Source of the DNA: Microbulbifer thermotolerans
GTDB taxonomy: Bacteria; Pseudomonadota; Gammaproteobacteria; Pseudomonadales; Cellvibrionaceae
Assembly: GCF_900112305.1 (NCBI RefSeq)
Contig: NZ_FOKT01000004.1
Span: forward strand, 213,209-277,208
Reading direction: 5' to 3'
Length of the DNA stretch: 64,000 nucleotides
A program made the position numbers and the translations under genes. Under the pieces are notes generated by a model. That model saw only the letters and a list, made by a program, of their open reading frames with translations, ran no database searches and was not told where the DNA came from. Positions 38,373 to 54,990 of the stretch are shown here, in pieces; the first letter of the stretch is position 1, and each line of letters opens with the position of its first letter.

Positions 38373-38984
38373 TCAGCAGTCGCCGAGGCAGTATTCCGCC
38401 GGTATCTCTACCGGGTAGAAGGCGCCACTGAAAGTGGCGACGACAGTGACCGCCAGCAGCAGGCCCAACACCATGGCACCCGCGGCGGCTCTGTCGAGGA
38501 CCCGCGGGGTAAAACGGCGCCGCAACAGCCAGCGCAGCGCGCAGGCCAGGTGGGTGAAATAGGCCACCACCGCAAGGGTATAGTAGGGCATGAAAAAGGC
38601 GGGATAAGCGCCGGGCTGCAGGCCTGCCGCGGCGAAAAAGAAGTTGGTGTCCACGCCTTGAACCGTACGCCCGTAGAGTATCGCACCGATGTGGAAGAGG
38701 AAAAAGAAGGCCAGGTAGGCGCCGGAGACGGCCTGGGCGCGGTCGAAGAAACCGCGTCGTTGGCCGATGCGGCGGATGATAAATGTCATTCCGGAGCCAA
38801 CCTGGAAGAGCACGCAAGCCAGCAACAACGGCTCTACCAGAGCGTTCCGGTAGATGTTGCGGTAGCTGTCCATAAAGGCGATATGTTCCTCCACGCCACC
38901 TAGTGCGAGCAAGTGATTGGCCAGATGAACGAGGATGTAAAGGCTGATCAACAGTGCCGAAGCACGGTGTAACTTGTGCAGCAT
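38373..38984 (-). CDS. Membrane protein resembling a succinate dehydrogenase cytochrome b anchor
   Basis: The 203 residues form about five membrane helices. The start HKLHRASALLISLYILVHLANHLLAL and later FFLFHIGAILYG and YFTHLACALRW place His residues within helices, as in the haem-binding anchors of fumarate/succinate dehydrogenases. No catalytic subunits are nearby. It is the last gene of the 39-55 kb leftward cluster. An electron-transfer partner for the diiron enzyme two genes upstream is possible but unproven. Confidence 0.6.
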   Translation of the reverse strand: MLHKLHRASALLISLYILVHLANHLLALGGVEEHIAFMDSYRNIYRNALVEPLLLACVLFQVGSGMTFIIRRIGQRRGFFDRAQAVSGAYLAFFFLFHIGAILYGRTVQGVDTNFFFAAAGLQPGAYPAFFMPYYTLAVVAYFTHLACALRWLLRRRFTPRVLDRAAAGAMVLGLLLAVTVVATFSGAFYPVEIPAEYCLGDC

Positions 38985-39039
38985 TGATCCGACTCCAAAT
39001 TTCCAGAATCCGCGCCGCCGCGGCGTTTTTACACAATGG

Positions 39040-39852
39040 TCAGGTCAGGGGGTGAATCTCGTCCGGCCCGATGGCCCGCAGGGCGCGCCGGGCGTAATAG
39101 GCAAAGGTCGCCCCGGTACGCTTTTCGTGCAGCACCCAGTCATGGGCCTCGCGGGCAAGCTGTGGGTCTATATCCCGCACCCGGCCCGCCGACTCGGCTA
39201 GCAACTGAAGGCGCGCCGCTCGCTCGCACTGGATTGCCAGCACACAGGCCTCTTCCACCGAGCGGCAGGCCAGTACCAGGCCGTGGTGCGCCAGCAGCGC
39301 CGCGCGTTTGTCGCCGAGTGCCGAGGCGATGATCTCGCCCTCGCTATTGCCCACCGGAACGCCGGGCCACTCAGCCAGGAATGCCACCTCACCGTAGAGT
39401 GGGCAGGTGTCCATATGGGCAATTTCCAAGGGCCTGCCCAGCATCGACAGCGCAGAAATGTGCAGTGGGTGGGTGTGCACTATGCACTGCACATCCGGCC
39501 GTGCGCGGTAGATCCAAGAGTGGAAGCGGTTGGCGGGATTGGCCATTCCCTCTCCGGAGAGCACTTCCAAGTCTTCGTCAACTATTAGCAGGTTGGAGGC
39601 GGTGATCTCGTCAAAGCCCAGGCCAAGGCGCTGTGTGTAATAGGCTTCCGGTACCTCGGCGCGGGCGGTGATTTGACCGGCGAGGCCGGAGTCGTGCCCC
39701 TGGGAAAACAGAATGCGGCAGGTAAGCGCGACTTTTTCCCGCAGGGACCAGTCGGGGATATCGAGGTGTCTGTGCATCGCATCCTGGGCGCGCCGTACCA
39801 GCTCGCATTTGTTCAAGGACAGGGTTTCGCCTGTGATCTTTTCTGCGCTCAC
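39040..39852 (-). CDS. Class II aldolase/adducin-family protein
   Basis: The 270 residues have the fold's zinc-binding His pair in VHTHPLHISALSMLG and the later LLAHHGLVLACRSVEEACVLA. The N-terminus is SLREKVALTCRILFSQGHDSGLAGQITARAE. Members include sugar-phosphate aldolases and decarboxylases; the substrate here is unknown. It lies 20 bases behind the haem-oxygenase-like gene and belongs to the metabolite cluster. Confidence 0.88.
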   Translation of the reverse strand: MSAEKITGETLSLNKCELVRRAQDAMHRHLDIPDWSLREKVALTCRILFSQGHDSGLAGQITARAEVPEAYYTQRLGLGFDEITASNLLIVDEDLEVLSGEGMANPANRFHSWIYRARPDVQCIVHTHPLHISALSMLGRPLEIAHMDTCPLYGEVAFLAEWPGVPVGNSEGEIIASALGDKRAALLAHHGLVLACRSVEEACVLAIQCERAARLQLLAESAGRVRDIDPQLAREAHDWVLHEKRTGATFAYYARRALRAIGPDEIHPLT

Positions 39853-39871
39853 TGTGAACTCCTCTGATATA

Positions 39872-40600
39872 TCAGGCCGGAATGGCTTCGGGCGCCGTGT
39901 CAGCGTGCGTGGCCTGGGGCTGCGACCCGCGGCAGGCGGCCTCTATGGAGTCGAAGAAGCGCAGGCGGGCCTCCACCAGGTCGCTGCCGGCAGCGAGCAT
40001 GATGCCGAGTTGGCCGGGATCGGCGGCCGCGATATCCACCATTATGTCGCGGATGGTTTCCGCGTGGCCGTCGTCGCACTCTATGTGCAACAGGAAAAAC
40101 TCGATGTCCCCGTCTGCGGCACCGCGGGCGCGGAAGCCGGCGACTATGTCGCCGTAGATTGCCGGAACCAGCGCCTCTGCTCCTAGACAAAGGGCACCCA
40201 GGCCGGCACTGGGCCTCGTGTCACGGCAGTGGCGGAACATGGTGTCGATCAGCTGGCTGGTACCGGGCAGTAGTTCGGCACTCTCCAGACTCACTTCAAA
40301 GCGGTCGAGCATAGAGCGGTAAACCTCATGGTGAGGTTGGGGACTGTCCGGCTCCAGGCCAAGTTCTTCAAACAGGTTCTCTGCCAGGGCCAGCACTTCC
40401 CTGTTACTGGGCAGGTTGGCCATCATGGCGCAGAGGTAACGGGTGAAGTAGGCGCTGTAGAGGCCCTGCTGGGCAAGGAATACTTTCAATTCATCCAACT
40501 GGATTGCGCCTTCCCGGCAACGCTGCAGAAATGGGTGTGAGCGCAGGCGTCCGATTAAGGCGCCCTTGCCGGCTTCGAGCAGTTTAAGTTGCATATCCAT
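39872..40600 (-). CDS. Haem-oxygenase-like diiron oxidase (iron-containing redox enzyme family)
   Basis: The 242 residues form a TenA/HO-like helical bundle. Candidate iron ligands are in place: Glu79 (ENLFEELG), His90/91 (QPHHEVY), Glu142 (LGAEALVPAIYG), His172, Asp176/177 and His179 (LLHIECDDGHAE). Family members such as UndA, BesC, SznF and CADD carry out oxidative C-C cleavage, N-oxygenation or self-sacrificing aminobenzoate synthesis. ATG 40600 has AAGGAGAG upstream. It is divergent from the LuxR gene. It may oxidise the aromatic amine made by the cluster or supply another building block. Confidence 0.85.
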   Translation of the reverse strand: MDMQLKLLEAGKGALIGRLRSHPFLQRCREGAIQLDELKVFLAQQGLYSAYFTRYLCAMMANLPSNREVLALAENLFEELGLEPDSPQPHHEVYRSMLDRFEVSLESAELLPGTSQLIDTMFRHCRDTRPSAGLGALCLGAEALVPAIYGDIVAGFRARGAADGDIEFFLLHIECDDGHAETIRDIMVDIAAADPGQLGIMLAAGSDLVEARLRFFDSIEAACRGSQPQATHADTAPEAIPA

Positions 40601-40786
40601 TGGGTGTTCTCTCCTTGTCACTTACGGTTCGTATATGTCGGGTTTGCCAAAGACAGCACAGGGACCGGACGGGGTTAATGGAAACTTTTTCTCTTCTTTG
40701 TCATTAAACTGCGTTACTATTGGGTGGTTTTCTGCAGGAACGCAGAATAATCCTTTGATTTTCCTCGTTTTATTGGGAGAAAAGAT

Positions 40787-41515
40787 TTGTGCCCGCAAAA
40801 GGAAGTGATTCGGGCCCTGCCCGACCTCTTGGCTGCGCAGACCGTCGAACAAGTCAAAGACCGCATCCGCGGCTCCGTCCGTGCCATCGGTTTCGACTTT
40901 TTTTTGATTGGCATCGAAAAGCCCACAGCCTCCGGTGGCGCGCCATACAGCGTGCAGACCAATTACCCGCGAGAGTGCGTCGAGCGCTACAGCCGGCTGC
41001 GCTGGGTTGGACGTGATCCCGTGGTTCGCCACTGCCGGCAGTCGCCGGTACCGATGATTTGGCATAGGGAGCACTTTCCCGGCGAGGCCCGCGAGCTGTA
41101 CGAGGAGTCCGCGGCTCACGGAATCGCCACTGGCGTGGCCACAGCGTTGCGCAGCGCCGGGCACAGCCGGGCGATGATGATTTCTGTGGCCAATGGAGCC
41201 CCGTTCAGCAAGCGGATCGAGTCCTGGCTCACCGAGACAATGCCCACTATTCAGCTGCTGGCTTCCTACGCGTACGAGGCGATACTGCGTATTGAGGAAG
41301 CCGAAGCGGCGGCGGACGTGGGTTTGACGCCGCGAGAAGGGGAATGCCTGCACTGGGCGGCGGTGGGCAAGACCTCCTGGGAGATCTCGCGCATTCTCGG
41401 CTGCTCCGAGGCGACGGTGAATTTTCATTTTCGCAATATCATCCATAAGCTGGGGGTTTCCAATCGACCCCAGGCCGTGGCACGGGCCCTGTCCCTGGGG
41501 CTGATCCAACCCTAG
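40787..41515 (+). CDS. LuxR-family regulator with autoinducer-binding domain (LuxR solo)
   Basis: The 242 residues have an N-terminal acyl-homoserine-lactone-type domain and a C-terminal GerE helix-turn-helix (LTPREGECLHWAAVGKTSWEISRIL, then SEATVNFHFRNIIHKL). Aligned to TraR, Tyr61, Asp70 and Trp85 are kept (Tyr68, Asp77, Trp92), but Trp57 is Cys64. No luxI gene is in the window. The start is TTG 40787 with GGGAGA upstream. The 3' end overlaps the converging ligase gene by 4 bases. It probably controls the cluster. Confidence 0.92.
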   Translation: MCPQKEVIRALPDLLAAQTVEQVKDRIRGSVRAIGFDFFLIGIEKPTASGGAPYSVQTNYPRECVERYSRLRWVGRDPVVRHCRQSPVPMIWHREHFPGEARELYEESAAHGIATGVATALRSAGHSRAMMISVANGAPFSKRIESWLTETMPTIQLLASYAYEAILRIEEAEAAADVGLTPREGECLHWAAVGKTSWEISRILGCSEATVNFHFRNIIHKLGVSNRPQAVARALSLGLIQP

Positions 41516-43963: not shown

Positions 43964-45286
43964 TTACGCGTCGGAGAGCACTGCGCGGATCGGCCGTCTC
44001 ATTATCTTGTGGGTTGGAATTGCGCTGGCGATCACCGCGAGCAGTACTACTCCCATCAGCGCGGCCACATACGTGGGAAGAACCCAGGCCAGATCGATCG
44101 GTACCGCGTTGCTGGAGCCGGGCGGTGTCCACATGATCTGCGCCTCGCGTACCGTCCAGACAATAGCGGCGGTGGCGCCTATGCCCGCCAGCGCCGCGCC
44201 CAGGGCCAACCAGCTGTTTTCCAGCGCGGTTAGCGCCAACACAAAGCGGCGGGTGAAACCGAGGCTGCGCAGCGTCGCGAACTCGCGTGATCGCTGGATA
44301 AAATTCATGTGGCTGGCGTTTAGGAGGCTGGTGAAACCGATGGCGCAGGCAATGAGGGCGATAAAATTGAGGAAGCCGCCGAGCACTGCTTTGACTTGCT
44401 GGTAGAAGGCAGCGCGGTCGGACCAGAGAAAGACTGCCACATCTTCCAGGCCCGCTTCGGCCAGGGCGGTGGCGATACGTGCCCGTGCGGCGGCCTCGTC
44501 GCTGCCGTCTTTGAGCAGCAGGTGGTACTCGCTGACATCAGTGGTGTTGAGCAGCGCCTGGGCATCGCCCATGGGCATCACAACCAGGCGGTCGTTAATT
44601 TCCTTGATACCCCAGTCCATGATCCCGGTGGGCTGTGCGCGTACTGCGTTGACACGCGCCGTGCCGCGGGTGGTCGCGGTCAGCTCCAGGGCTCCGGGGG
44701 GACATTCGAGTGGCCGCGATTGGGGAGTGTCGCCGGGCTGCAATGGTGCGAACCCCACATCCGGCACATCGCAGCCGAGAATGGCTGCGAGGCCTTGGCC
44801 GAGCACCAGCGGTTGCGGGCGGGTTTCCATCCACAGTGGGGTGCCGGCGACCACATCGTATTCGTAGGCCGGCCCCTTGATCGCGCGAATTGCCTCCACG
44901 TCCTGGCCAATGCCGGCGAAGATGGTGCTCACCTTGGTGTTTGACACCATTCCGGAAATGCGCAGAACGCGCGCGTGGGTTTGCAGTTGCGGCTCTTCGT
45001 CCAGTACCGCTTCAATGCGGCGCTGAATTTCCGCGGTCAGCGGAAGCTGTCCCGCACCCTCGACCCTGCGGGCGAGTTCGGAAGCGGGGCGCTCAATCAC
45101 CAAGTGACCGCGGGCGCCCCAGCGCATGAAAGCGTCGCGGATCAGTTCTACGTTGGATTGCGTATAGCCGGACAGCAGGCACAAGGCGAGCACGGAAACC
45201 GTCATCACGATAAAGGTGCCGAGGGATTTGCGCCCGTGTCGCCACAGGTTGCGCAGGGACATGGTCAGCAACAGTTTGACAGGCAT
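43964..45286 (-). CDS. ABC transporter permease (FtsX/MacB/LolE type)
   Basis: The 440 residues have an N-terminal helix (SLRNLWRHGRKSLGTFIVMTVSVLALCLLSGY), a large periplasmic domain of about 230 residues with a MacB-like fold, and three C-terminal helices. The coupling segment NFIQRSREFATLRSLGFTRRFVLALTALEN is the FtsX signature. TAGGAGC precedes the ATG. It lies 10 bases behind the second permease gene. Together with the ATPase it would form a LolCDE/MacB-type exporter. Confidence 0.93.
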   Translation of the reverse strand: MPVKLLLTMSLRNLWRHGRKSLGTFIVMTVSVLALCLLSGYTQSNVELIRDAFMRWGARGHLVIERPASELARRVEGAGQLPLTAEIQRRIEAVLDEEPQLQTHARVLRISGMVSNTKVSTIFAGIGQDVEAIRAIKGPAYEYDVVAGTPLWMETRPQPLVLGQGLAAILGCDVPDVGFAPLQPGDTPQSRPLECPPGALELTATTRGTARVNAVRAQPTGIMDWGIKEINDRLVVMPMGDAQALLNTTDVSEYHLLLKDGSDEAAARARIATALAEAGLEDVAVFLWSDRAAFYQQVKAVLGGFLNFIALIACAIGFTSLLNASHMNFIQRSREFATLRSLGFTRRFVLALTALENSWLALGAALAGIGATAAIVWTVREAQIMWTPPGSSNAVPIDLAWVLPTYVAALMGVVLLAVIASAIPTHKIMRRPIRAVLSDA

Positions 45287-45296
45287 ATCTGTGCTC

Positions 45297-47273
45297 CTAA
45301 AGGGTCATCAGTGTGTCGACGGAAAACAGGCTTTCCGGAGGATCAGCGGGTATCACCTGGTCGTACTGGAGAAGGCTGTAGCGCTCGGGGAAGTTGGCGT
45401 TGACGATTTTCATGCGCGATACAAAGAGCCGCGCTTCGCCGTTGATCTGTACCCGGTTGCCGTACTCAAAATGCGCCACTTTGAGGGGCATGCCGCTGGC
45501 GGTCAGAAATTCGGCCCTGACGCCGAGGCGGCTGCGCCGATCTAGGTAGTAGATAATGGCTTCATAGGTGGCGCTGTCCGTGGCGGCGGTAAGTTTCAGC
45601 TTGTGGCAGGGGATGCCGTCCAACTCCACTGGCCCCAAATACTCTGGGGTGTAGTCCCGGGCGTATTGAGTCGCGGCAATGTCACCATTGGCTGCTTCGC
45701 CCACCAGGCGCTGCTGGGGACTGATGCTGATCGGTTTGCGCAGGCCCGGCTTCGCGTACCACATGGCCCGGGAGGCGATGAGTATCTTTTCCCCGCGGTA
45801 GCGCCGCGGCGCGGTGGTCATCGCCAGGGCGCGGCCGTTCCGCACGGCGATATCGTAGTCGGTGTCCGTAGCGCCAGCCGGGTCTTCGGTGTGTATGCTC
45901 AGCTTCCACATATAACTGCCCCAGCCACCGCGAGCCAGGTCAGCCTGTTTGAGCCAGTTGCGCATGGTTTCCTCATCCGGCACCTCCTCGGCGGGCGCCG
46001 TTAACGGCAGGGCCAGCAGCAGGCAGGCGGCGGATGCCAACATGCGGGTCAGGGGCACGCCGCGGCGCCCGGGGCGCACTTCGCCTCCGACTCGTTTGCG
46101 CGCGGTGAGTAAGGCGCCAAGAGTGATTCCCGCACAGGCGCAGGCGATGGCGCCGATAGCCCAGGTGGGCGGCAGCTGTAGGGTCAGCGCGGTGGGTTCA
46201 GCGATGCGCGGCAGCTGGGTTTGCACACCGATCAGTGCCAGTGCGGCGATGACCGTGTAGGCGAGAGCGGTGGCGACCAGCGCTGCCGCCAGGGTTGTTA
46301 ATAGACTCTCGCGCACGAACAGCCCGGCGATGCGTCCGCGGCTGAACCCGAGGGAGCGCAGAATGCCAATCTCGCGGGTTCGGTCGGCCACGTTCATCGC
46401 CACCGTGTGCTGGATGGTAGTGAGCGCAATGGTGAACACGACGATACCGGTGAAGGCGAACACCATGGTGAAGAATCCCATAAAGCTGGTGTAAAGCTGG
46501 CCTATTTGCGGGTGGTCCCAGGTGGTGACTTCGAAGCGGCCGGGTTGCTGCCGCTCCAGCGCCGCCGCCAATTGGTTGCGGAAGGCGCCGCTGTGAACGC
46601 GGTCGTCTAGTTGGATAACCACCCGCGAGACGGCATCGGTGTCGTACAGGGACTGCAGCAAATCCAGAGGTGCTTTGAGCCCTTTGTCTTCGATGGCTTC
46701 AATGCCGGTGGAAAAGTCGCCAGTCAGTGGCGCCTCTATGGCGTTCATGCGGTTGGCGTAGGAGGCGCCGAACAACTGCAGATAACTGCCTTTATCCGGG
46801 CGGCCGAGCAGGTCCTGCAACTGAGTGGTAAGCAGCAGACCATTTCGGGGCGGGGGTGATGCGGCCAGCGGACTGTGTTGCTGTAGCGCGGTTTCGAACT
46901 CAGGATCTACGCCGCGGGCGAGGAAAACGGCGCTTTCGCTGTCCGCTTGTGCCATGCCGACACCCATCAACTGATTGGAAGCGCGCACAAAATGCGTCAA
47001 TTCGGCGGCGGTGCGGTGAATCAACGCCTGCTCCGCGCTGTCGAGCGAGTACTGTGCCGGACTCGCCGCCAATTGTTCCGGGCCGTCTTTGCGGTAGACC
47101 TGCACATGCGCATTGGCATCGCGGTAGATGACCACTGAGGCCAGGGAGCTCTCCACGAAGCGGATATAGCCGAGAAACATCAGCACTGCGAACAGACCCG
47201 CGCTCACAGCGATGATGGTGGCCAGGGTGCGCCTGCGATCGCGGTAGAGGTTGCGGAAAGCCATGGACCACAT
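45297..47273 (-). CDS. ABC transporter permease fused to a LolA-like domain
   Basis: The 658 residues split in two. Residues of about 1-400 are an FtsX-type permease (MAFRNLYRDRRRTLATIIAVSAGLFAVLMFLGYI at the start, then NVADRTREIGILRSLGFSRGRIAGLFVRESLL). From about Met411 (46043) there is an internal hydrophobic segment (MLASAACLLLALPLTAPAEE) and a LolA-like lipoprotein-sorting domain: ARGGWGSYMWKLSIHTEDP, ILIASRAMWYAKPG and LDGIPCHKLKL. It ends NANFPERYSLLQYDQVIPADPPESLFSVDTL. No stop separates them. The domain would lie in the periplasm and could receive a hydrophobic cargo from the exporter. Confidence 0.85.
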   Translation of the reverse strand: MWSMAFRNLYRDRRRTLATIIAVSAGLFAVLMFLGYIRFVESSLASVVIYRDANAHVQVYRKDGPEQLAASPAQYSLDSAEQALIHRTAAELTHFVRASNQLMGVGMAQADSESAVFLARGVDPEFETALQQHSPLAASPPPRNGLLLTTQLQDLLGRPDKGSYLQLFGASYANRMNAIEAPLTGDFSTGIEAIEDKGLKAPLDLLQSLYDTDAVSRVVIQLDDRVHSGAFRNQLAAALERQQPGRFEVTTWDHPQIGQLYTSFMGFFTMVFAFTGIVVFTIALTTIQHTVAMNVADRTREIGILRSLGFSRGRIAGLFVRESLLTTLAAALVATALAYTVIAALALIGVQTQLPRIAEPTALTLQLPPTWAIGAIACACAGITLGALLTARKRVGGEVRPGRRGVPLTRMLASAACLLLALPLTAPAEEVPDEETMRNWLKQADLARGGWGSYMWKLSIHTEDPAGATDTDYDIAVRNGRALAMTTAPRRYRGEKILIASRAMWYAKPGLRKPISISPQQRLVGEAANGDIAATQYARDYTPEYLGPVELDGIPCHKLKLTAATDSATYEAIIYYLDRRSRLGVRAEFLTASGMPLKVAHFEYGNRVQINGEARLFVSRMKIVNANFPERYSLLQYDQVIPADPPESLFSVDTLMTL

Positions 47274-48010
47274 TACGCCACCTCGCTGTCTTTGCTTGGT
47301 AATACAGAGGTGTCGGCTTTGTCGCCGGCGGTGGGGCGGTCAGCAGATAATTTGCCGTCGCGGAGCTCAACAACTCGACTGACGTGTTGCAGCAGTCTTT
47401 GGTCGTGGGTGGAAAAGACGAAGGTCACCCGCCGCTCGGTGTTCAGCTCTTTCATCAATTCCACCAATGAGAGGGCACTGGGGGTGTCGAGGCTGGCGGT
47501 GGGCTCGTCGGCCAGAATCAGTTTGGGTTCTGTGACCAGGGCGCGGGCGACCGCGACCCGCTGGCGCTGGCCACCGGACAACTGGTCGGGACGGAAGTCC
47601 GCGAAGCGGGTCAGACCGACGGCAGCCAGGGCCGCGCAGGCGCGCATCCGCCGCTCTTCTTGGGAAATCTTGTGTAAATGGAGCGGCAGCATGACGTTTT
47701 CCAGAGCGGTCAGTACCGGCACCAGATTGAAATTCTGAAAGATGATGCCGTAGGTGCGGCTGCGCAGTTGATCCAGAGCATGGTCATCGAGACTGCTGAC
47801 GGGGCGGCCGGATACGCGGATTTCCCCTGACGAGGGACTGTCCAGGCAGCCGATAAGGTTCAACATTGTGGTCTTTCCGCTGCCGCTGGGCCCGGTGATG
47901 GCGACAAAGTCACCACGGCGTACGGCAAAGTTGACAGCGTCCAAAGCGGTGACCTCCACTTCGCCGAGTCGGTAGCGCTTGGTGACCGATTCGAATTCCA
48001 CCAAATTCAT
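47273..48010 (-). CDS. ABC transporter ATPase (LolD/MacB type)
   Basis: The 245 residues have Walker A GPSGSGKTTMLNLIG, the Q-loop IIFQNFNLVPVLTALENVMLPL, the signature LSGGQRQRVAVARAL, Walker B LILADEPTASLD and the H-loop STHDQRLL. The stop overlaps the start of the fused permease by one base (TAATG), so translation is coupled. Confidence 0.96.
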   Translation of the reverse strand: MNLVEFESVTKRYRLGEVEVTALDAVNFAVRRGDFVAITGPSGSGKTTMLNLIGCLDSPSSGEIRVSGRPVSSLDDHALDQLRSRTYGIIFQNFNLVPVLTALENVMLPLHLHKISQEERRMRACAALAAVGLTRFADFRPDQLSGGQRQRVAVARALVTEPKLILADEPTASLDTPSALSLVELMKELNTERRVTFVFSTHDQRLLQHVSRVVELRDGKLSADRPTAGDKADTSVLPSKDSEVA

Positions 48011-48046: not shown

Positions 48047-49318
48047 TCAGAAGAAGGCGTCCAGAGCCAAATAAGCGCTGCGGGTAACCGGCTGACTCAT
48101 TTCCAGCGCTTTGCCAGCACGACTGCGCGAGAGTCCCAAATAAACGGTGGCGTCGTCGCTGGGGCTGTAAGAAAGCTCCGCGAAGCTACTGCTGCTGGCG
48201 GAATCCAAACCCTGTAGCAGTCGTGCGGTCAGGCCCCAGCGGCGGTCGCCGAACAACTTTGGCCAGGTGGTTTGCAGCAGCGCGTAGTGGCGCTGTGCGA
48301 AGGGGTGCAGAGGCCTATTTCTGGAGGGGCCCCGCCCGGCTGAAGGTAGGGCGGCGAGTGTGGGATTTAGTAGTTCCTTATCGCTCTGGGCATAGCCGTT
48401 GTAGATGAGTTCGAGGCCTGTCTCTGCGCCGGATGTGGCGCCGTAGCGCAGATTGAAAACGCCGTCCCAACGCCAGCGTGAGCGGTTCTGTGCCAGTGGC
48501 TCGGCGCCGCTGGCGGTCTCGGCATAGCCGCGCGATGCGGATGCTTCAATGCCAATGGTCCAGGCTTCACCGAGACCGTGTTGGAAATAGCCGCCGATAT
48601 AGGGTCGGAAACCGCCGCCGCCGCCAGCTACAGCACCCAGGGTGGCGATGCGGCTCTCCACCCAGTTCCACTCGGCGCGAGCCAGGGTGAAGGTGCCGCC
48701 GCTCTCAATGCCGTCCACCGGGTCAAGTCGTGGGTCCGCCAATAGTAGGTTGGCGCGGCCGCGGGATGTAATAGTGGTGCTTGCGAAGAGCATGGGTTTA
48801 CCGGGGATATCGCGGCGGGGGGTTACGGCGCCGTTGTCGGGAAACAGGCGGTTGGTGGGGCTGTAAAGTAGCGATGGCCCCCAGCCAATCAGGCGCTTGC
48901 CGGCGCCGATGCGGCTGCCGCCGTCCAGTTCGCGCAGCAGATAGCCTTCGGCGAGCCAATCGGGATGCGGGTCCGGCATGGCCTGAGGCCGCTCGTCGTC
49001 TTCCAGGGCCAGGCGCGGTTTTAGAACCACGCGCGTGCCGTCGCAGGGCTTCCTATTGCAGCGCAGCTGCAGGTCTAGGCGCAGCTCGGCGGCGCTGCGC
49101 TCGGTGTTGTCACCGCCGCTCCAGGATGTGGAAAGAGGGGCGAAGAGTTGTTCGCGCTCCCGGATCAACTGCAGTGTGAGCTCGTAGTCGGAGCTCCAGG
49201 TTTTTTGCCCGCCGCTGCTGTCAAAGGCCCAGTCGTTATCGGCGGCTGACGGCGCGGCGCAGATCGCGGCGGTCAGTAGTGCTGGAATCAGGCGGACTGC
49301 AGTGCACTGGCTTCGCAT
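48047..49318 (-). CDS. Outer-membrane beta-barrel protein of the cluster
   Basis: The 423 residues have a signal peptide (MRSQCTAVRLIPALLTAAICAAPSAAD) and many alternating strands. Examples are YELTLQLIREREQLFAPL, YLLRELDGGSRIGAGKRLIGWGPSLLY and YLGLSRSRAGKALEMS. It ends SAYLALDAFF with the C-terminal Phe of barrels. Its start lies inside the upstream ligase gene (31-base overlap) and it precedes the ABC genes. It may be the outer-membrane exit or acceptor for the exporter. I do not know a named family. Confidence 0.75.
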   Translation of the reverse strand: MRSQCTAVRLIPALLTAAICAAPSAADNDWAFDSSGGQKTWSSDYELTLQLIREREQLFAPLSTSWSGGDNTERSAAELRLDLQLRCNRKPCDGTRVVLKPRLALEDDERPQAMPDPHPDWLAEGYLLRELDGGSRIGAGKRLIGWGPSLLYSPTNRLFPDNGAVTPRRDIPGKPMLFASTTITSRGRANLLLADPRLDPVDGIESGGTFTLARAEWNWVESRIATLGAVAGGGGGFRPYIGGYFQHGLGEAWTIGIEASASRGYAETASGAEPLAQNRSRWRWDGVFNLRYGATSGAETGLELIYNGYAQSDKELLNPTLAALPSAGRGPSRNRPLHPFAQRHYALLQTTWPKLFGDRRWGLTARLLQGLDSASSSSFAELSYSPSDDATVYLGLSRSRAGKALEMSQPVTRSAYLALDAFF

Positions 49319-51066
49319 GGAGCCGCCTCCGCTATGGGTTTCTGTTGTGCCTGCAGCAGGGTGTTGTAGCGTTCGCGCAGGTGTCGCTTGAGGGTTTTGC
49401 CGGTGGCACCTATTGGGAACTCTTCCCAGCTAATCACCCACAGGTGGATCAGCTGTTGTTCCTCGGGCAGGAGGGCGTTTAGTGTGCGCCGCAGGGTTTC
49501 CGCGTCGGGGATACGCACATTGGCCTGTGGGGCAACCACTGCTGCGGGTACTTCCGGTCCATTTGCGCGCGGGCGGACGCCGAAGACGCAGGTGTCTAAA
49601 ACGCCCTCCTGCTTCAGCACTATCTCTTCGAGTGGCAGGGTATATACGGGACCGCGGGCGGTGTGCATCACGTCTACCTCGCGATCCAGGTGCACCAGTT
49701 CACCGTCTTCGCCTTCGCACACCATGTCGCCAGTGAACCACCAGCCATCGCGGGTAGCGGAATAGAAAATGTCGTGGGCATTCCAATAGCCGCCGAACAT
49801 GCTCTTGCCCCGAATCATCAGACGACCGACCTCGCCTCTGGGGACCGGGACACCATCGGCGTCAGCGATTTTTATCTCGGGGCCGAGTGGCGTTCGGCGC
49901 CCCACTCGGCGGGAGAATTTCTTGGTCCAGGGGGTGGCGATACGCAGCAGGGCGGCGATGCCCACCTCGCTGGAGCCTAGGCCGTCGACAAACAGTGAGC
50001 CTTTCAGCGGGATACCGAGGCGGGTAAAAAAGGAACCGTGGGGAATTAGGGCGCGCTGCTGTACCTCGTGGCTGGCGTCCGCGGTTGTGCCCCAGATGCG
50101 CACACTGTCCAGCGGCTGATCCGTGACCCCAGCTTCCAGCAGGCGTGTGTAGGTGATTGGGAATCCGAAAAACACAGTGGGTTTTCGCTCGTGCAGCTGG
50201 CGTACCAGCTCGGGGGCCGCCATTTGAGGGTTGACTATGCAACGCACGCCCATTAACAGCACCCCGTGCAGATAGAGGTGTGAAACCTGGTGATTCAACG
50301 GCAGCGCGAAGCAGGCCAGATCGCGGGTGGAAACGGGGTTGAACAGAATGATGGAGCGCAGCGACTGGGCTAAGCCCTCCTGCTTGAGGATCACGCCCTT
50401 GGGGACGCCGGTGGTGCCGGAAGTGTGCACTATGTAGAGGGGATCTTCGGGGCCTCGGGGGCGCTCGGGGGGCGTGGGCAGTGCTTCATCCAGCAGCCGC
50501 GTCAAGCTGTGTACGCGATGACAGCCAGCATGACGGGGCGTGTCCGTTAGCACTATCTGTCGGATATCCTGTGATAGAAGTTCTTCTCCCTGCCCTGTCA
50601 GTTTCCACCAGGCATCACTGTCGGTGATCAGTAGCCGCACACCCAGCCGCTCCATATAGCCAGCGGCTGTGTCCGCGGCCAAATTGGCGTTGATCGGTAC
50701 TGCGATGGCGCCGATGCGCAGTGCGGCTACAGAAAATAGAAAGTAGTCGAACTGGTTGGCCTTGTAGATGGCCACTCGGTCCCCTTGTTCGACCCCCAAA
50801 TGGTGCCAGCAGGCGGACAGTTTTTTCACTGTGGTCAGAATCCGAGGGGTGCTCCAGTGCAGTTCGTCTGTCCAGCTCAGGGGGCTGGTCAGCTCCACCA
50901 GCTTCCGGTCGCCGTGGCGGCGCATAGCGAATTCCAGCGCGCGGTCTACGCGATCGTCCCAGCGGGCCAGCAGAGACAGGCGGCCGAAGTAGCCCAGCTG
51001 TGCGGCGGCGAAGAGTAGGTAGGCGAAAAGCAGGGTGGCGATAGCGGCGATTGCGTAGCTCATCAT
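49288..51066 (-). CDS. Membrane-anchored AMP-dependent acyl ligase
   Basis: The 592 residues start with a membrane helix (IAAIATLLFAYLLFAAAQLGYFG). The ANL motifs follow: YIVHTSGTTGVPKGVILKQEG, IWGTTADASHEV, GWWFTGDMVCEGEDGELVHLDREVDV, and the Lys-bearing FPIGATGKTLKRHLRE. It resembles fatty-acid or bile-acid type CoA ligases. As the second ligase of the cluster it probably activates an acyl partner for the acyltransferase 8 bases upstream. The N-terminal anchor suggests that it works at the inner membrane. Confidence 0.88.
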   Translation of the reverse strand: MMSYAIAAIATLLFAYLLFAAAQLGYFGRLSLLARWDDRVDRALEFAMRRHGDRKLVELTSPLSWTDELHWSTPRILTTVKKLSACWHHLGVEQGDRVAIYKANQFDYFLFSVAALRIGAIAVPINANLAADTAAGYMERLGVRLLITDSDAWWKLTGQGEELLSQDIRQIVLTDTPRHAGCHRVHSLTRLLDEALPTPPERPRGPEDPLYIVHTSGTTGVPKGVILKQEGLAQSLRSIILFNPVSTRDLACFALPLNHQVSHLYLHGVLLMGVRCIVNPQMAAPELVRQLHERKPTVFFGFPITYTRLLEAGVTDQPLDSVRIWGTTADASHEVQQRALIPHGSFFTRLGIPLKGSLFVDGLGSSEVGIAALLRIATPWTKKFSRRVGRRTPLGPEIKIADADGVPVPRGEVGRLMIRGKSMFGGYWNAHDIFYSATRDGWWFTGDMVCEGEDGELVHLDREVDVMHTARGPVYTLPLEEIVLKQEGVLDTCVFGVRPRANGPEVPAAVVAPQANVRIPDAETLRRTLNALLPEEQQLIHLWVISWEEFPIGATGKTLKRHLRERYNTLLQAQQKPIAEAAPCEASALQSA

Positions 51067-51073
51067 CTTGGCT

Positions 51074-52483
51074 TTATCTCCTGGGTGGGGATTGCAGCTC
51101 TTCCAACAGGTGCCGCAGGGCGTCTAGATAGGGTGCGGCGAATTCCCTGTGGATATCTCTGAAGGCCGCGCGGCGGTAAACCAGGTCCAATTGCATGCGG
51201 CCGTTGACGGTGGGCGTGTACAGAATGAAATCGTACGGGGGTACCAGGCAGCCGAAGCCCAGGTAACTTTGGGTGCGGTGTTCGCTGGAACCGAAGGAGG
51301 AAAAGTCCTCCTCGATGCGCCCCGGATTCGAGTAGCAGGCGTTGGTGCCCTGGCACAGATTCAGCAGGTGTCGCGCGGGGCCGCGCAGGGAGCGCAGCCG
51401 CAGCAGTGGCAGCAGGATTTCCAGCCGTCCGAGTTCAGTGCCTATTTGCCGGTCGCTGCGCGCCCGGCAAATAGCTGTATGCAGGTTGTGCAGCAGGGCT
51501 GGAGTTTGTTGGCCAGTGCGCAGGCGGATGCCGCTGGGCACCAGGTAGTTGCGGAAACTGCGGTCGTGGTGATGCTCGATCAGGCGCCGCAGGCTGATGG
51601 CACAAGTGATGCGCAGTGTGCCGCGATGGTGGCTGCCAGTGGACTCCATTAACCGCGCCAGCGCCGCGCATAGAAGGGTGTTAATGGTGACCCCTGCGCT
51701 TTTGGCCGCTGGTCCCAGACGCGCCTCCAGTTCCCGTGGCAGCAGACTGTGAAAAAAGTCCAGCTGTCCTATATCTGGATCGGCTGCCATCCCCTCCCAG
51801 CGCTGTCCCTGAAGTTGTACGGTGAAGCCGATATCGCGGTGCAGTAAATCCGCAACGACACTGCCCAGGGCCCGCAGCCAGCGGTGTCCACGCACTCGCG
51901 GGCGGAACCAGCCGGGGCGTATTTCCGCCAGGGGCGCGAAAGGCAGTTCGCCTCCGGGGGCTGTGGCACCGGGTACCCCGGTAATATGGGCGTAGTGCCC
52001 GATGATGGCGCGCAATAGCAGGCAGTCGCTGCGGGCATCGGCGACGCCGTGATGACTGCTCAGATAAACGCAGGAATTGTGGCCGCCGTTGCCGGTAACC
52101 AGCAGCAACTGCAGTGGCGGCCGCTCGCGCCAGCGCAGGCGATGCTCTGAACTGAAATTCATTAACAAGTGGCGGAAGGCTGCGTCGTTGAAATCACAGG
52201 GGGCGGCGTATTCAAGGTGCTTCACCCAGCGGGTGGTGGAAGTATCGAAGGGGCGCAGCTGACCGACGTCCGGGCGGTAGCGCAATAATGGGATCTGCGC
52301 CACTGCGCGCTGCACACTCTGTTCCAGTGCCAGGGGATCCAGCCGGCCACTGACAATCAGTAACTGATTGGTGTTGACGTTGGCCATATCGCCGAGGTGT
52401 ATGAATACTTCGGCCAGCGCGTCCAGGGCGCGTTTGCCGGCAAGGCTGTCGTCGGTGGTTGCAGAGGTGGTCAGGCTGGTCAC
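51074..52483 (-). CDS. Condensation/WS-DGAT-like acyltransferase (HHxxxD)
   Basis: The 469 residues belong to the CoA-dependent acyltransferase superfamily. The active motif is HHGVADA at residues 144-150, and a second-half segment reads ITCAISLRRLIEHHHDRSFRNYLV. GTG 52483 was chosen because AAGGGA lies 6 bases upstream and it starts 10 bases behind the SDR stop; longer readings overlap the SDR gene. Relatives make esters or amides from acyl-CoA or carrier-bound acids. Here an aminohydroxybenzoate is a plausible acceptor. Confidence 0.8.
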   Translation of the reverse strand: MTSLTTSATTDDSLAGKRALDALAEVFIHLGDMANVNTNQLLIVSGRLDPLALEQSVQRAVAQIPLLRYRPDVGQLRPFDTSTTRWVKHLEYAAPCDFNDAAFRHLLMNFSSEHRLRWRERPPLQLLLVTGNGGHNSCVYLSSHHGVADARSDCLLLRAIIGHYAHITGVPGATAPGGELPFAPLAEIRPGWFRPRVRGHRWLRALGSVVADLLHRDIGFTVQLQGQRWEGMAADPDIGQLDFFHSLLPRELEARLGPAAKSAGVTINTLLCAALARLMESTGSHHRGTLRITCAISLRRLIEHHHDRSFRNYLVPSGIRLRTGQQTPALLHNLHTAICRARSDRQIGTELGRLEILLPLLRLRSLRGPARHLLNLCQGTNACYSNPGRIEEDFSSFGSSEHRTQSYLGFGCLVPPYDFILYTPTVNGRMQLDLVYRRAAFRDIHREFAAPYLDALRHLLEELQSPPRR

Positions 52484-52493
52484 TTTGGGTCCC

Positions 52494-53603
52494 TTAGATG
52501 GCTTCGGCCACTCTTGCTGCGTTGCCTTCGTTCGCGGTGGAAGACTCGTTTGCATACCAGCGGCAAAGGGCGTGGAGTTCGTCGCGCGAAAGTGGTTGCA
52601 CCGGCTGTTCGAGGTCGATGGCGGCATCCAGGCGGGAGCGCTGGAATTGCCACTCGGTGCGCGCGAAGGGGCGGTTGGGGGCCACGGCGCGGTCGAATTT
52701 TTGTTCCATTGCGGTAGTGGGGGTGCCAAGGCGGGCGTCGATACCGGCCACCTGTCCCCAGATGCGCACGATTTCCTCCATGCGCACTTGAATACCGCCG
52801 CTGGAGTGGAATACCTCGAAGGTGTCACCGGTATCTCTGCGCAGTGTCAGGGCGCAGGCGTCGGTGCAGAGTTGGTCGATCGGAACCAAATCTGGCCGCG
52901 CCTCCGGCAGCAGATCTACGGTGATTTCTCTGTGACCGGCAGCGGCGATGGCGATCATCGCGTCCTGGAACATGTAAAAACCGAAGCCGTTGCGGTGCGC
53001 CCAACCGGTGTGGCGGTGTCCGACCACCACCGTTGGGCGGAAGACTGTGATTGGCAGGCCGCAGCGCAGATACAGCAGATGCAGCGATTGTTCCGTGCTC
53101 CACTTGGTGACTTGGTAGGTGTTGACCATGCGGCCCCTGGCGTGCAATTCCTCGCGCACCGGGCCGCCGGCCATACCGGCGACATAGGCGGTGGATACAT
53201 AGTAGAAACGGCGGCAGCGGGGGGCGCAGCGCACGGCGGTTTCGTACAGGCGCGCGCTGTTGCCGACGTTGGTATCGAAGGAGGTCCCCAATTTGTGGGC
53301 GGAGTAGCTCATCTCCGCGGCCACGTGCCAAATTTCGGTGATTTCCTCCAGTCCGGCGTTGGCTAGCTCACCCTCCAGGTCGGCGAAGTTGATATTGAGT
53401 ACCCGCAGGTGATGTTTTACTGCGCCGCTCACGTCAAGCCCGCATCCGCGGGCCGCGGTCAGTATTGCCTCTGTGGTCCGCACGCCGTCGGGGTCATTGC
53501 GGGATACGGCGGTCACTTTGGCACCTCGGGCCAGAAGATTCGCGGCCAGGGCGCTGCCGACAAAGCCGGTGGCGCCGGTAATCAGTACCTGATGCACTTC
53601 CAC
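52494..53603 (-). CDS. Thioester-reductase-like SDR
   Basis: The 369 residues have a Rossmann motif ITGATGFVGSALAANLL and an extended-SDR active site. Ser lies in YYVSTAYVAG, and Tyr and Lys in TYQVTKWSTEQ. VFRPTVVVGH and DLVPIDQLC then resemble the NAD_binding_4/thioester-reductase family. It may reduce an activated aromatic or fatty thioester to an aldehyde or alcohol. An epimerase role is possible. It lies 73 bases behind the GriH-type gene. Confidence 0.82.
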   Translation of the reverse strand: MEVHQVLITGATGFVGSALAANLLARGAKVTAVSRNDPDGVRTTEAILTAARGCGLDVSGAVKHHLRVLNINFADLEGELANAGLEEITEIWHVAAEMSYSAHKLGTSFDTNVGNSARLYETAVRCAPRCRRFYYVSTAYVAGMAGGPVREELHARGRMVNTYQVTKWSTEQSLHLLYLRCGLPITVFRPTVVVGHRHTGWAHRNGFGFYMFQDAMIAIAAAGHREITVDLLPEARPDLVPIDQLCTDACALTLRRDTGDTFEVFHSSGGIQVRMEEIVRIWGQVAGIDARLGTPTTAMEQKFDRAVAPNRPFARTEWQFQRSRLDAAIDLEQPVQPLSRDELHALCRWYANESSTANEGNAARVAEAI

Positions 53604-53676
53604 TCTCCTTTTCTATCCGGTTGATGGGGAAGCGGTGGGCGTCGCCGGGGATAGCCCTGCCCACCGGGTGGAGGAA

Positions 53677-54990
53677 TCAAAGTTCGATGATGTGTTCATC
53701 GACTTTTACGCCCACGTGGCGCCCCGGTTCGGTACCAAAACCGAGTACGCGGTCGCCGGGCTTGAGTTCGGTGACGTTGAGGGGTTTGGCCTCGTCGGAA
53801 AAAATCCGCACGTGCCAGTCATCCTGCATGATGATGTTGACTTTGCGGTTCTCCGGGAAGGTCGCCTCGATTAGCAGCAGTGGCCGTATCTCGGTTTTTG
53901 TGCGCCCTACGTAAATCTGCCGGGTCTCGCCGCGGGCGTTTACCGTAGTCAGCTGACTGCCGGCGCGCAGTTCGCTGATGTAGCTGGTGCGGTCGTTGCT
54001 CTGAAAGACATAGCTGTGCACCGAGGCAGCGTTGATGCGGAAGGGACGCAGCTCCATGTAAGGAAGATGGAACACTTCCGGGCAGCAGAGGATGCCGCCG
54101 GTGGAGGTGGAACCCACCAGTATGCCTTCATCCGGGTTGAACATGTGGGAGGTGTCTATGCAGGCGCGGTAGCCCAGTCCCAGGTGGGTAATGCGGTCGA
54201 TCACACCCACCTGGATTTCGATCCTGGGCGACGCTTGGGCGTCCATTTTGCTGGCGAAGCGGTCGAACTGTTCCATTGTTGTAAAGGAGGTCAGTACGCC
54301 GTCGCTGCCTAGTTCGAGCACGCCGAGGGCAATGACCGCATCGTCCACATCCTGGTGCACCTCCTTCAGCAGAACCGTATTGGTTTTGTGCAGTTCTGCG
54401 ATGACCAATTCCAGGGGGATATTGGTGGGATCTTTAAAAGAGACCATTAGGTGGTCGAAGTGCATTCCCAGGTGAAAGGAGGCGTGCAGGCTGGTGGCAT
54501 TGTCCACATGCATGCGGAGGCTGGTGCGGAATCCAGCTGCCCGGGCCGCGTTCAGTACTTGAGGCTCATAGCTGGAAATAACCGCCACGCGCTTGCCGTC
54601 ACTTTCAGCCCCGGCCTTTTCGGTGAAGTGATTCCAGTCCTCAAGGGTTTCCAAATGCAGTATCCGCTGCAGGCGCGGTGAAACCGCTTTGTCCATTTCT
54701 GCGATATTGTCGGCGTAAAGCACTATGCCGTTGTAGCGGCCTTGCCCCAGGCGTTGGACGATCGCTTTGCTTGAGTCCTCGTCCATGGTCGCCAGCACGC
54801 GGGAGTCGTACCAGAGTAAATGTTCACGGCTTTGTGGAACTTCGGTTGTAACCGGGAAGAGCGCAGTGTTGGCTGGCGCCGCCGGTTCGAGTGGCGTGGT
54901 GGGGCCGCGTTTGGACGGTGTTGCCTTGGCTGCGCCATTCTTGCGAGAGGTTTTTTCCGCGGCTGGGCGTTTGCTCTGCACTTGTTCCAT
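53677..54990 (-). CDS. GriH/DHQ synthase II-type 3-amino-4-hydroxybenzoate synthase
   Basis: The 437 residues belong to the archaeal-type 3-dehydroquinate synthase family (AroB'), which in bacteria includes GriH and NspH. Family signatures are FKDPTNIPLELVIAEL, GVLELGSDGVL, YRACIDTSHMFNPDEGILVGSTSTGG, LPYMELRPFRINA and VHSYV. VGRTKTEIRPLLLIEA, MQDDWHVRIFSDE and GRHVGVKVDEHIIEL follow. The first 70 residues are a Lys/Ala/Pro-rich extension not expected in the family. ATG 54990 has AGGAAA upstream and is the first gene of the leftward cluster. With the GriI-type aldolase it would make 3,4-AHBA. Confidence 0.88.
   Translation of the reverse strand: MEQVQSKRPAAEKTSRKNGAAKATPSKRGPTTPLEPAAPANTALFPVTTEVPQSREHLLWYDSRVLATMDEDSSKAIVQRLGQGRYNGIVLYADNIAEMDKAVSPRLQRILHLETLEDWNHFTEKAGAESDGKRVAVISSYEPQVLNAARAAGFRTSLRMHVDNATSLHASFHLGMHFDHLMVSFKDPTNIPLELVIAELHKTNTVLLKEVHQDVDDAVIALGVLELGSDGVLTSFTTMEQFDRFASKMDAQASPRIEIQVGVIDRITHLGLGYRACIDTSHMFNPDEGILVGSTSTGGILCCPEVFHLPYMELRPFRINAASVHSYVFQSNDRTSYISELRAGSQLTTVNARGETRQIYVGRTKTEIRPLLLIEATFPENRKVNIIMQDDWHVRIFSDEAKPLNVTELKPGDRVLGFGTEPGRHVGVKVDEHIIEL

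What the first reader, a model, noticed from the sequence alone, without database searches (positions are those of the whole stretch)
38373..54990. Probable 3-amino-4-hydroxybenzoate biosynthetic cluster in a gammaproteobacterium
A GriI-type aldolase (43109-43930) and a GriH/DHQ-synthase-II-type enzyme (53677-54990) lie in one leftward gene set. It also holds two ANL ligases, an HHxxxD acyltransferase, a thioester-reductase-like SDR, a diiron HO-like enzyme, a class II aldolase, an ABC exporter with an outer-membrane barrel, and a LuxR solo. GriI and GriH convert aspartate semialdehyde plus DHAP to 3,4-AHBA in Streptomyces (grixazone; related pairs in nitrosobenzamide, ferroverdin and manumycin-type pathways). 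I know of few Gram-negative examples, and this set of tailoring and export genes is not one I recognise.
Basis: partly seen in the sequence, partly recalled or inferred. Interest (0 to 1): 0.92.

Follow-up and report, generated by a model that had tools for sequence, protein, structure and literature searches.

The report
Gram-negative 3-amino-4-hydroxybenzoate export gene cluster
A marine bacterium carries a gene set, shared with other Gram-negative bacteria, that probably makes and exports an unknown small molecule built on an aminophenol acid so far studied mainly in Streptomyces, perhaps with an unusual nitrogen-nitrogen bond.

Summary
In detail: a GriI-like aldolase and a GriH-like synthase lie in one leftward set with the genes listed. 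The host is a Microbulbifer. The set sits between efp and epmB, which are neighbours in 9 of 10 cluster-less genus-mates examined. Ten core genes recur together in 17 loci (six named genera and a MAG), so this is a conserved pathway, not a one-off. 3,4-AHBA as the starter is likely but unproven: GriI is as far from an Ava-type GriI (33.7%) as from archaeal MJ0400 (33.3%). New here: the second ligase (ANL2) is a membrane-anchored sister of the CmaA6/AvaA6/Tri17 ligases that activate nitrite, but lies outside that clade. The diiron enzyme (HDO) stands with a class II aldolase in 13 loci and with a cupin in 4, never both; in Paludibacterium it is fused to a diazotase-type ligase. A CreE-like protein was found in only 1 of 20 such genomes. 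I propose an exported 3,4-AHBA derivative whose amine ANL2 modifies, HDO plus partner supplying oxidised nitrogen. That last step is inference, and 6 of 23 griH loci lack HDO. Verdict: new variant of a known kind.

The parts
53677..54990 (-). griH-like 3-dehydroquinate-synthase-II family enzyme, 437 aa
   Evidence: Pfam DHQS 300 bits; PRK02290.1-3 302.6, BagC_FevH 243 bits, both below cut-off; relatives 77-86% identical in Microbulbifer, Pseudomonas, a MAG, Paludibacterium and Chromobacterium
52494..53603 (-). extended SDR, NAD_binding_4 / thioester-reductase-like; TGxTGFxG and YxxxK
   Evidence: Pfam NAD_binding_4 88 bits; Y and K of YxxxK in 19 of 19 aligned rows; only weak matches to AvaA7-type candidates
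51074..52483 (-). HHxxxD acyltransferase (condensation/PapA5/WS-DGAT-like); GTG start inferred
   Evidence: weak Pfam Condensation 23.9 bits, below cut-off, PapA5 24.7 bits; second His and Asp in 19 of 19 rows, first His is Ala in 4
49288..51066 (-). ANL2: membrane-anchored adenylating enzyme, sister lineage of nitrite-activating N-N-forming ligases
48047..49318 (-). outer-membrane beta-barrel; no Pfam family; model resembles porins and AlgE
   Evidence: no Pfam hit; AlphaFold model pLDDT 70.4, Foldseek E 1.7e-9 and weaker
47273..48010 (-). LolD/MacB-type ABC ATPase
   Evidence: Pfam ABC_tran 115 bits; LolD model 235 bits, below cut-off 307.75
45297..47273 (-). FtsX/MacB-type permease with C-terminal LolA-like domain (PF17131)
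   Evidence: FtsX 44 bits, LolA_like 86.5 bits in one 658-aa frame; matched over 1-658 in 18 loci from 16 other genomes
43964..45286 (-). second FtsX-type permease
   Evidence: Pfam FtsX 65 bits
43109..43930 (-). griI-like class I aldolase, 273 aa; D27, Y145, K174 align with D, Y, K of MJ0400
   Evidence: Pfam DeoC; PRK07226 198.7 bits
41512..43059 (-). ANL1: benzoate/anthranilate-CoA-ligase-like enzyme
   Evidence: TIGR02262 205.6 bits, below cut-off 375; best PDB matches are benzoate-CoA ligases, then anthranilate-CoA ligase 4wv3
40787..41515 (+). LuxR-type regulator with autoinducer-binding domain
   Evidence: Autoind_bind 89 bits, GerE 70.5 bits
39872..40621 (-). HDO: haem-oxygenase-like diiron enzyme; E86 H97 E149 H179 D183/D184 H186 invariant in 13 of 13 aligned (their role as metal ligands recalled)
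   Evidence: Haem_oxygenas_2 78.8 bits
39040..39852 (-). class II aldolase family protein, PRK07090 type
   Evidence: NCBIfam PRK07090 435 bits, above cut-off 261
38373..38984 (-). small integral membrane protein, possibly cytochrome-b-like; present in some relatives only
   Evidence: Sdh_cyt E 0.005, below cut-off

Best explanation
This is a conserved Gram-negative biosynthetic island for an exported metabolite built on 3-amino-4-hydroxybenzoate. Proposed order: GriI joins aspartate semialdehyde and DHAP; GriH cyclises the product to 3,4-AHBA; ANL1 activates its carboxylate; the HHxxxD enzyme transfers the aryl group to an alcohol or amine, with the SDR adjusting that partner. ANL2, anchored in the inner membrane, acts on the arylamine, most likely by activating nitrous acid to form an N-N (diazo-type) bond, as its closest characterised relatives do. 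HDO with the class II aldolase (a cupin in some relatives) supplies the oxidised nitrogen or pre-oxidises the amine. The lipophilic product leaves through the LolCDE/MacB-like transporter with its built-in LolA-like carrier and the outer-membrane barrel, under a LuxR-type regulator. Shown by sequence: the families, the conserved neighbourhood, the lineage of ANL2, the HDO partner swap. Inferred: every reaction, the order, and the product.
For: Ten core genes conserved in 17 loci, window included. GriH's best model equals that of an ava-type griH. GriI keeps D, Y, K wherever the column is filled in 35 rows. griI is found in the own genome and in 14 of 14 other griH genomes searched for it. ANL2: best PDB sequence matches 9xb8 (function unknown to me), 8ztz (CmaA6) and 9bq0/8tf7 (Tri17) at 147-172 bits against 97 for FadD13. 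An HMM of 23 CmaA6-like ligases scores 12 of 12 cluster ANL2 at 326-363 bits and 18 of 18 other ANLs at 210.5 or less. Shared DAxHE, H[TS]SGTTG, DGLGSSE, TGATGK. HDO profile strong in 16 of 20 griH genomes (13 of the 16 gave rows to the profile) and in 1 of 7 griH-less Microbulbifer. ANL-HDO fusion in one gene row with griH/griI in Paludibacterium. CreE-like protein in 1 of 20 such genomes. 3-Acetamido-4-hydroxybenzoate esters (bulbiferates) are known from a Microbulbifer (PMC11285056, passages), and 3-acetamido-4-hydroxybenzoate is a shunt of 3,4-AHBA pathways (PMC11429834, passages).
Against: ANL2 is outside the CmaA6-like clade, misses the AvaA6 cut-off (202 against 975 bits) and scores slightly higher on a generic ligase model (210). 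It has a membrane helix (11 of 11) and lacks the N-terminal GxGN motif that 23 of 24 CmaA6-like ligases have (0 of 12). Its model matches ordinary ligases almost as well. HDO and its partner are missing from 6 of 23 griH loci and occur without griH in G003; Cupriavidus agavae has a 66% identical ald2 on another contig but no HDO. HDO's nearest named relatives are, weakly, 4-aminobenzoate synthase/CADD and BesC, not an N-oxygenase. GriI is no closer to an AvaI-type protein than to MJ0400 and prefers the ADH-synthase model over BagB_FevI, unlike the ava-type griI. No product is known.
Confidence: 0.5

Rival explanations
1. The cluster makes an acylated or esterified 3,4-AHBA (bulbiferate-like or longer-chain) and has no N-N chemistry. 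ANL2 is a fatty-acid or aryl ligase from the stock out of which the diazotases arose; the SDR reduces an acyl-CoA to an alcohol and the HHxxxD enzyme forms the ester or amide.
For: ANL2 scores 210 bits on a generic fatty-acyl ligase model and 202 on AvaA6; membrane anchor and missing GxGN motif; SDR of the NAD_binding_4/thioester-reductase type; Lol-like exporter; bulbiferates from Microbulbifer sp. WMMC-695.
Against: ANL2 shares many residues of the CmaA6-like ligases and stands nearer to them than the 18 other ANLs sampled; it leaves HDO and its partner unexplained.
Confidence: 0.3
2. GriI and GriH do not make 3,4-AHBA but a different amino-heptulosonate-derived acid, closer to the archaeal AroA'/AroB' route.
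For: GriI is 33.3% identical to MJ0400 and 33.7% to an AvaI-type protein; the ADH synthase model outscores BagB_FevI for GriI, 167 to 108 bits, whereas the ava-type griI of L089 shows the reverse, 240 to 281.
Against: GriH prefers PRK02290.1-3 and BagC_FevH over the DHQ-synthase-II equivalogs, though the second only by 12 bits; neighbours are aryl-acid ligase and arylamine-ligase relatives; related griH/griI pairs sit with CmaA6-like ligases in L027 and L043.
Confidence: 0.12
3. A diazotisation-dependent deamination route to 4-hydroxybenzoate or its esters (parabens), as in the ava and cma clusters: ANL2 diazotises and a reductase removes N2.
For: Microbulbifer makes 4-hydroxybenzoate and parabens; proteins about 28-33% identical to three of the four AvaA7 candidates of the ava-type loci, and in shorter matches to the fourth, are present in the Klebsiella plasmid and Paludibacterium second clusters.
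Against: The window SDR matches those AvaA7 candidates only weakly (35.4 bits or less, mostly the N-terminal nucleotide-binding part); no other candidate reductase stands in the window cluster.
Confidence: 0.07

Closest known systems
Actinobacterial 3,4-AHBA clusters with a diazotase (cre, ava, cma, crx)
   Same: GriH/GriI pair, an aryl-acid ANL and an ANL of or beside the nitrite-activating lineage in one cluster (PMC10777205 first part and passages, PMC11705231 passages, PMC11429834 passages)
   Different: No CreE-like match in the own genome; no PKS or carrier protein among the cluster's Pfam matches; has HDO plus class II aldolase, an HHxxxD acyltransferase and a Lol-like exporter with barrel; ANL2 is membrane-anchored and outside the clade
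Bagremycin/ferroverdin and grixazone 3,4-AHBA clusters
   Same: GriH and GriI homologues
   Different: Both proteins fall far below the BagB_FevI and BagC_FevH cut-offs (108 of 500; 243 of 750 bits); the tailoring genes differ (content of those clusters recalled)
Bulbiferates A and B, Microbulbifer sp. WMMC-695
   Same: Same genus; aromatic core is a 3-acetamido-4-hydroxybenzoate ester
   Different: No gene cluster is assigned to them in the passages I read; that genome was not available here
SznF-type HDO-plus-cupin N-oxygenases
   Same: In 4 relatives the HDO gene is followed directly by a small cupin gene (Pfam Cupin_2 for one of them); SznF joins HDO and cupin domains (PMC11705231 passages)
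   Different: Separate genes; SznF itself was not among the PDB matches of the window HDO; in the window the partner is a class II aldolase; no N-nitrosourea evidence
LolCDE/MacB-type exporters
   Same: LolD-like ATPase and two FtsX permeases
   Different: Below LolD/LolCE cut-offs; LolA-like domain fused to one permease; own outer-membrane barrel

Membership tests
GriH/GriI 3,4-AHBA synthase pair | DhnA-type aldolase and DHQS-II enzyme encoded together | tested here: met
   griI in own genome and 14 of 14 other griH genomes searched
GriH/GriI 3,4-AHBA synthase pair | Catalytic Asp, Tyr, Lys of the aldolase (that these are the catalytic residues of MJ0400 is recalled) | tested here: met
   D 35 of 35, Y 34 of 35, K 34 of 35 rows, the odd one a gap; the rows include MJ0400 and 1ojx
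GriH/GriI 3,4-AHBA synthase pair | Nearer to bacterial 3,4-AHBA enzymes than to archaeal shikimate enzymes | tested here: inconclusive
   GriH yes by model ranking but narrowly and below cut-offs; GriI equidistant and not grouped with actinobacterial GriI
[quoted passage not shown]
   needs enzyme assay
ATP-dependent, nitrite-activating ANL (CreM/AvaA6/CmaA6/Tri17) | Reaches the curated AvaA6 model cut-off | tested here: not met
   202 of 975 bits; the Klebsiella and Paludibacterium ligases also miss it (303, 313) but have it as best model
ATP-dependent, nitrite-activating ANL (CreM/AvaA6/CmaA6/Tri17) | Lies inside the clade | tested here: not met
   sister to it, 100 SH-aLRT, if the root lies among the other ANLs (quick tree with few outgroups and long branches)
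ATP-dependent, nitrite-activating ANL (CreM/AvaA6/CmaA6/Tri17) | Residues shared across the clade: DAxHE, H[TS]SGTTG, DGLGSSE, GATGK | tested here: met
   DxxH[EDY]-type and GATGKT patterns in 18 of 18 cluster ORFs from 16 genomes
ATP-dependent, nitrite-activating ANL (CreM/AvaA6/CmaA6/Tri17) | N-terminal GxGN motif | tested here: not met
   23 of 24 CmaA6-like ligases have it, 0 of 12 cluster ANL2; a membrane helix stands there in 11 of 11
ATP-dependent, nitrite-activating ANL (CreM/AvaA6/CmaA6/Tri17) | ATP and nitrite dependent N-N bond formation | not testable with these tools
   needs enzyme assay
HDO superfamily | Three-His/three-carboxylate diiron ligand set (set recalled) | tested here: met
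   invariant in 13 of 13 aligned
ANS nitrous acid pathway | CreE homologue in the genome | tested here: not met
   no match in own genome; match in 1 of 20 griH genomes and in the Streptomyces control G467. Query taken as CreE from its place in a cre-like plasmid cluster. CreD not searched
ava/cma diazotisation-dependent deamination | AvaA7-type reductase | tested here: not met
   window SDR matches AvaA7 candidates at 35.4 bits or less; the candidates were taken by position behind the AvaA6-type gene

The most novel reading that the evidence does not exclude
HDO plus class II aldolase (or, interchangeably, HDO plus cupin) is a previously undescribed, CreE/CreD-independent way of making nitrous acid (or an equivalent oxidised nitrogen donor) in Gram-negative bacteria. 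It feeds ANL enzymes that form N-N bonds on 3,4-AHBA-derived amines, and in Paludibacterium donor and ligase are one fused protein. The window's ANL2 would then be a new, membrane-bound branch of the N-N-forming ligases coupled to a Lol-like exporter.
Probability: 0.22. Interest if true: 0.85.

Novelty: new variant of a known kind. Interest (0 to 1): 0.6.

Why it matters
3,4-AHBA pathways and nitrite-activating diazotases have been worked out mostly in actinobacteria. A conserved Gram-negative version, found here in six named genera and a MAG, would open an unstudied metabolite family. The HDO/aldolase and HDO/cupin swap, with one HDO-ligase fusion, makes a specific hypothesis about an alternative source of oxidised nitrogen testable with three purified proteins. 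It also gives candidate genes for the acid part of the bulbiferates, known from the same genus.

Tried and rejected
Window SDR as an AvaA7-type diazo reductase: rejected, 35.4 bits or less. ANL2 as a plain member of the diazotase family: rejected on clade, cut-off and N-terminus. The 635-aa frame 40622-42529: not taken as a gene; no Pfam or NCBIfam match, and it overlaps ANL1 and the LuxR gene. CTGCAG-centred palindromes as a conserved LuxR box: rejected, CTGCAG found upstream of griH only in the window and L012 among 18 stretches looked at, two of which (L007, L013) are the same genome. My first motif count for ANL1 used wrong patterns (0 and 1 of 17); corrected. Rfam at gathering threshold: nothing in the cluster. 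The branch lengths of the griH and griI trees are unreliable, so I use only their broad grouping. I had no archaeal griH sequence in hand, so griH was not placed against archaea in a tree. A diiron enzyme of another fold, Dob3, makes diazo groups by oxidising hydrazones (PMC13061610, passages); nothing here points to a hydrazone, so I did not adopt it for HDO, but it is not excluded. Papers: ten searches brought up no description of this cluster in titles and abstract starts; the last was too broad to be a real test, and subscription journals are mostly not held.
Full report
WHERE IT LIES. The window is a stretch of a 3.9-Mb genome. Among 58 genomes searched, griH was found in 5 of 37 same-genus genomes, own included, and 0 of 21 others. 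Two of these, G036 and G015, have contigs of the same length as the named records of Microbulbifer variabilis and M. halophilus, so the host is a Microbulbifer. The cluster lies between efp (37722-38294) and epmB (55236-56324). I looked at the epmB site in 10 of the 32 genus-mates without a griH match: in 9 of 10 efp stands beside epmB, an empty site; the tenth, G003, has ald2 and hdo there (efp-ald2-hdo-epmB). In M. variabilis (L008) and G009 the parts lie on both sides of epmB. G+C of the cluster (0.61-0.63 in 4-kb windows) is a little above most of the left flank.

WHAT IS CONSERVED. Ten genes (griH, sdr, HHxxxD acyltransferase, ANL2, barrel, ABC, permease with LolA-like domain, second permease, griI, ANL1) recur together in 16 loci besides the window: five more Microbulbifer, Pseudomonas sp. 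sp1636, a gammaproteobacterial MAG, Paludibacterium, four Chromobacterium, two Paraburkholderia and two Cupriavidus. The LuxR gene is found in the Microbulbifer, Pseudomonas, MAG, Paludibacterium and Chromobacterium versions, not in the Paraburkholderia and Cupriavidus ones. Shorter sets with griH, griI, a CmaA6-like ANL and HDO, without the exporter genes, occur in Pseudoduganella, two Bdellovibrionota MAGs and a second Paludibacterium locus; a Klebsiella michiganensis plasmid and a Sinorhizobium medicae plasmid have griH, griI and an ANL without HDO. In samples of the wider groups it is rare: PF01959 matches 2 of 398 genomes of the phylum, own included, and the ANL2 profile at E 1e-70 matches 1 of 274 of the class, own only.

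GriI AND GriH. Both belong to the expected superfamilies. For GriH the top two models are the same as for the griH of an ava-type Streptomyces locus, L089 (PRK02290.1-3, then BagC_FevH), but at lower score (302.6 and 243 bits against 506 and 397); another Streptomyces griH beside a CmaA6-like ligase, L096, has them in reverse order, and for the window the next model, a DHQ-synthase-II equivalog, follows at 231 bits. A sister locus of L089, L090, holds a ligase above the AvaA6 cut-off (1120.9 of 975 bits), so the ava-type loci are fair references. GriI keeps the Asp, Tyr and Lys of MJ0400, but is 33.7% identical to the L090 griI and 33.3% to MJ0400, while the L090 griI is 42.9% identical to MJ0400. 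The griI tree puts the Gram-negative proteins apart from both. So the pair is a deep branch; 3,4-AHBA remains the most economical product because of the neighbours, not because of the trees.

ANL2. ANL1 is nearest to benzoate and anthranilate CoA ligases. ANL2 is different: its best PDB sequences are 9xb8, 8ztz and 9bq0/8tf7 at 147-172 bits, then a drop to 97 bits. 8ztz is the diazotase CmaA6 by its PDB title; 9bq0 and 8tf7 are Tri17 by the review PMC11705231 (passages). I do not know what 9xb8 does. CmaA6-like genes (E 1e-60) are in 35 of 199 Streptomyces genomes searched; I fetched 20 of these regions. An HMM of those 20 ligases and the three PDB sequences scores cluster ANL2 at 326-363 bits (12 of 12), the Pseudoduganella, Bdellovibrionaceae, Sinorhizobium and Klebsiella ligases at 460-678, and 18 other ANLs at 210.5 or less. 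Apart from CmaA6 and Tri17 the function of the 23 is inferred from similarity. The tree makes ANL2 the sister of this clade (quick method, long branches, few outgroups). It shares the clade's H[TS]SGTTG, DAxHE, DGLGSSE and GATGK residues. Against membership: it misses the AvaA6 cut-off and scores slightly higher on a generic model; a hydrophobic N-terminal helix is present in 11 of 11, and the GxGN motif of 23 of 24 CmaA6-like ligases is absent in 12 of 12. Its AlphaFold model (pLDDT 74.9) has CmaA6 first among PDB matches, but ordinary ligases follow closely. I therefore say that ANL2 may work like a diazotase but do not file it as one.

HDO AND ITS PARTNER. Residues that fit the diiron ligand set are invariant in 13 of 13 aligned proteins. 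Its best PDB matches are weak: 4-aminobenzoate synthase (34 bits) and BesC (30 bits), so N-oxidation is not indicated by similarity. Of 23 griH loci tabulated (22 plus the window), 17 have HDO. Its partner is the PRK07090-type class II aldolase in 13 and a small cupin in 4 (two Paraburkholderia, two Bdellovibrionota MAGs), never both and never neither (no cupin match above 23 bits in the window). This was judged within the loci, not genome-wide. In the second Paludibacterium locus one 801-aa frame joins a ligase whose best model is AvaA6 (312.7 bits) to an HDO, followed by the aldolase; in the two Bdellovibrionota MAGs the ligase and HDO genes overlap. By whole-genome search the HDO profile is strong (E below 1e-90) in 16 of 20 griH genomes, 13 of which gave rows to the profile, and in 1 of 7 griH-less Microbulbifer. 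A CreE-like protein, the first enzyme of the known nitrite supply, was found in 1 of the same 20 genomes (Paludibacterium, another contig) and in the Streptomyces control. The query was taken as CreE because it stands before an adenylosuccinate-lyase-family gene in a cre-like plasmid cluster; CreD was not searched. The reading that HDO plus partner replaces CreE/CreD follows from this pattern but no reaction has been shown. Four exporter-type clusters (Pseudomonas, MAG, both Cupriavidus) have no strong HDO and no CreE match, so they would need nitrite from elsewhere; and C. agavae has an ald2 relative without HDO. Both count against an essential role.

EXPORT AND PRODUCT. ABC and permeases are of the LolCDE/MacB kind without reaching those cut-offs. 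One permease carries a LolA-like domain in the same frame, and the barrel model resembles porins and AlgE. This suggests a lipophilic product taken to or through the outer membrane. Bulbiferates, 3-acetamido-4-hydroxybenzoate esters, come from Microbulbifer sp. WMMC-695 (PMC11285056, passages). 3-Acetamido-4-hydroxybenzoic acid is described as a shunt product of 3,4-AHBA pathways (PMC11429834, passages). The link is plausible and unproven; the original bulbiferate paper was not held.

VERDICT. Observation confirmed, interpretation partly supported. What makes the locus interesting is not the GriH/GriI pair alone but its conserved coupling, in Gram-negatives, with a new branch next to the N-N-forming ligases and with a swappable HDO module.

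Noticed in passing
L043:5760-13234 (Paludibacterium purpuratum, second cluster): griH, griI, AvaA7-like SDR, MFS transporter, an 801-aa fusion of a diazotase-type ANL with an HDO, and a class II aldolase, in a row.
   Followed up: partly
L031:11563-17496 (Klebsiella michiganensis plasmid NZ_CP048110.1): Plasmid-borne griH, griI, AvaA7-like SDR, MFS and AvaA6-like ANL, with IS elements nearby: a possible diazotisation-dependent deamination cluster in an enterobacterium.
   Followed up: partly
L030:1-20469 (Sinorhizobium medicae plasmid NZ_CP149880.1): griH and a griI-like gene next to a large adenylation-domain protein, an AMP-binding protein, a cobalamin-dependent protein, a SagB-type dehydrogenase and a PPTase on a plasmid typed as conjugative.
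   Followed up: no
L120:5176-9504 (Microbulbifer G003): ald2 and hdo alone between efp and epmB, in a genome without a griH match: remnant or independent unit.
   Followed up: partly
window 45297-47273: A MacB/LolC-type permease with a LolA-like domain in one reading frame, matched end to end in the 16 other exporter-type loci.
   Followed up: no
window 36663-56324: The island lies in an EF-P region: a tRNA-synt_2-family protein (36663-37631; EpmA-like by recall) and efp on one side, epmB on the other.
   Followed up: partly
G061:C4:53998-55803: A CreE-like gene (35% identity) elsewhere in Paludibacterium, perhaps a further nitrite-using cluster.
   Followed up: no
G063:C27:8531-9169 (Chromobacterium haemolyticum): A second, more distant HDO (203.6 bits) away from the cluster.
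   Followed up: no
L028:13897-15545: The diazotase-type ligase of a Pseudobacteriovorax MAG is split over two overlapping frames as assembled.
   Followed up: no
window 6234-6535: Two tRNA-Leu (cag) genes in tandem.
   Followed up: no
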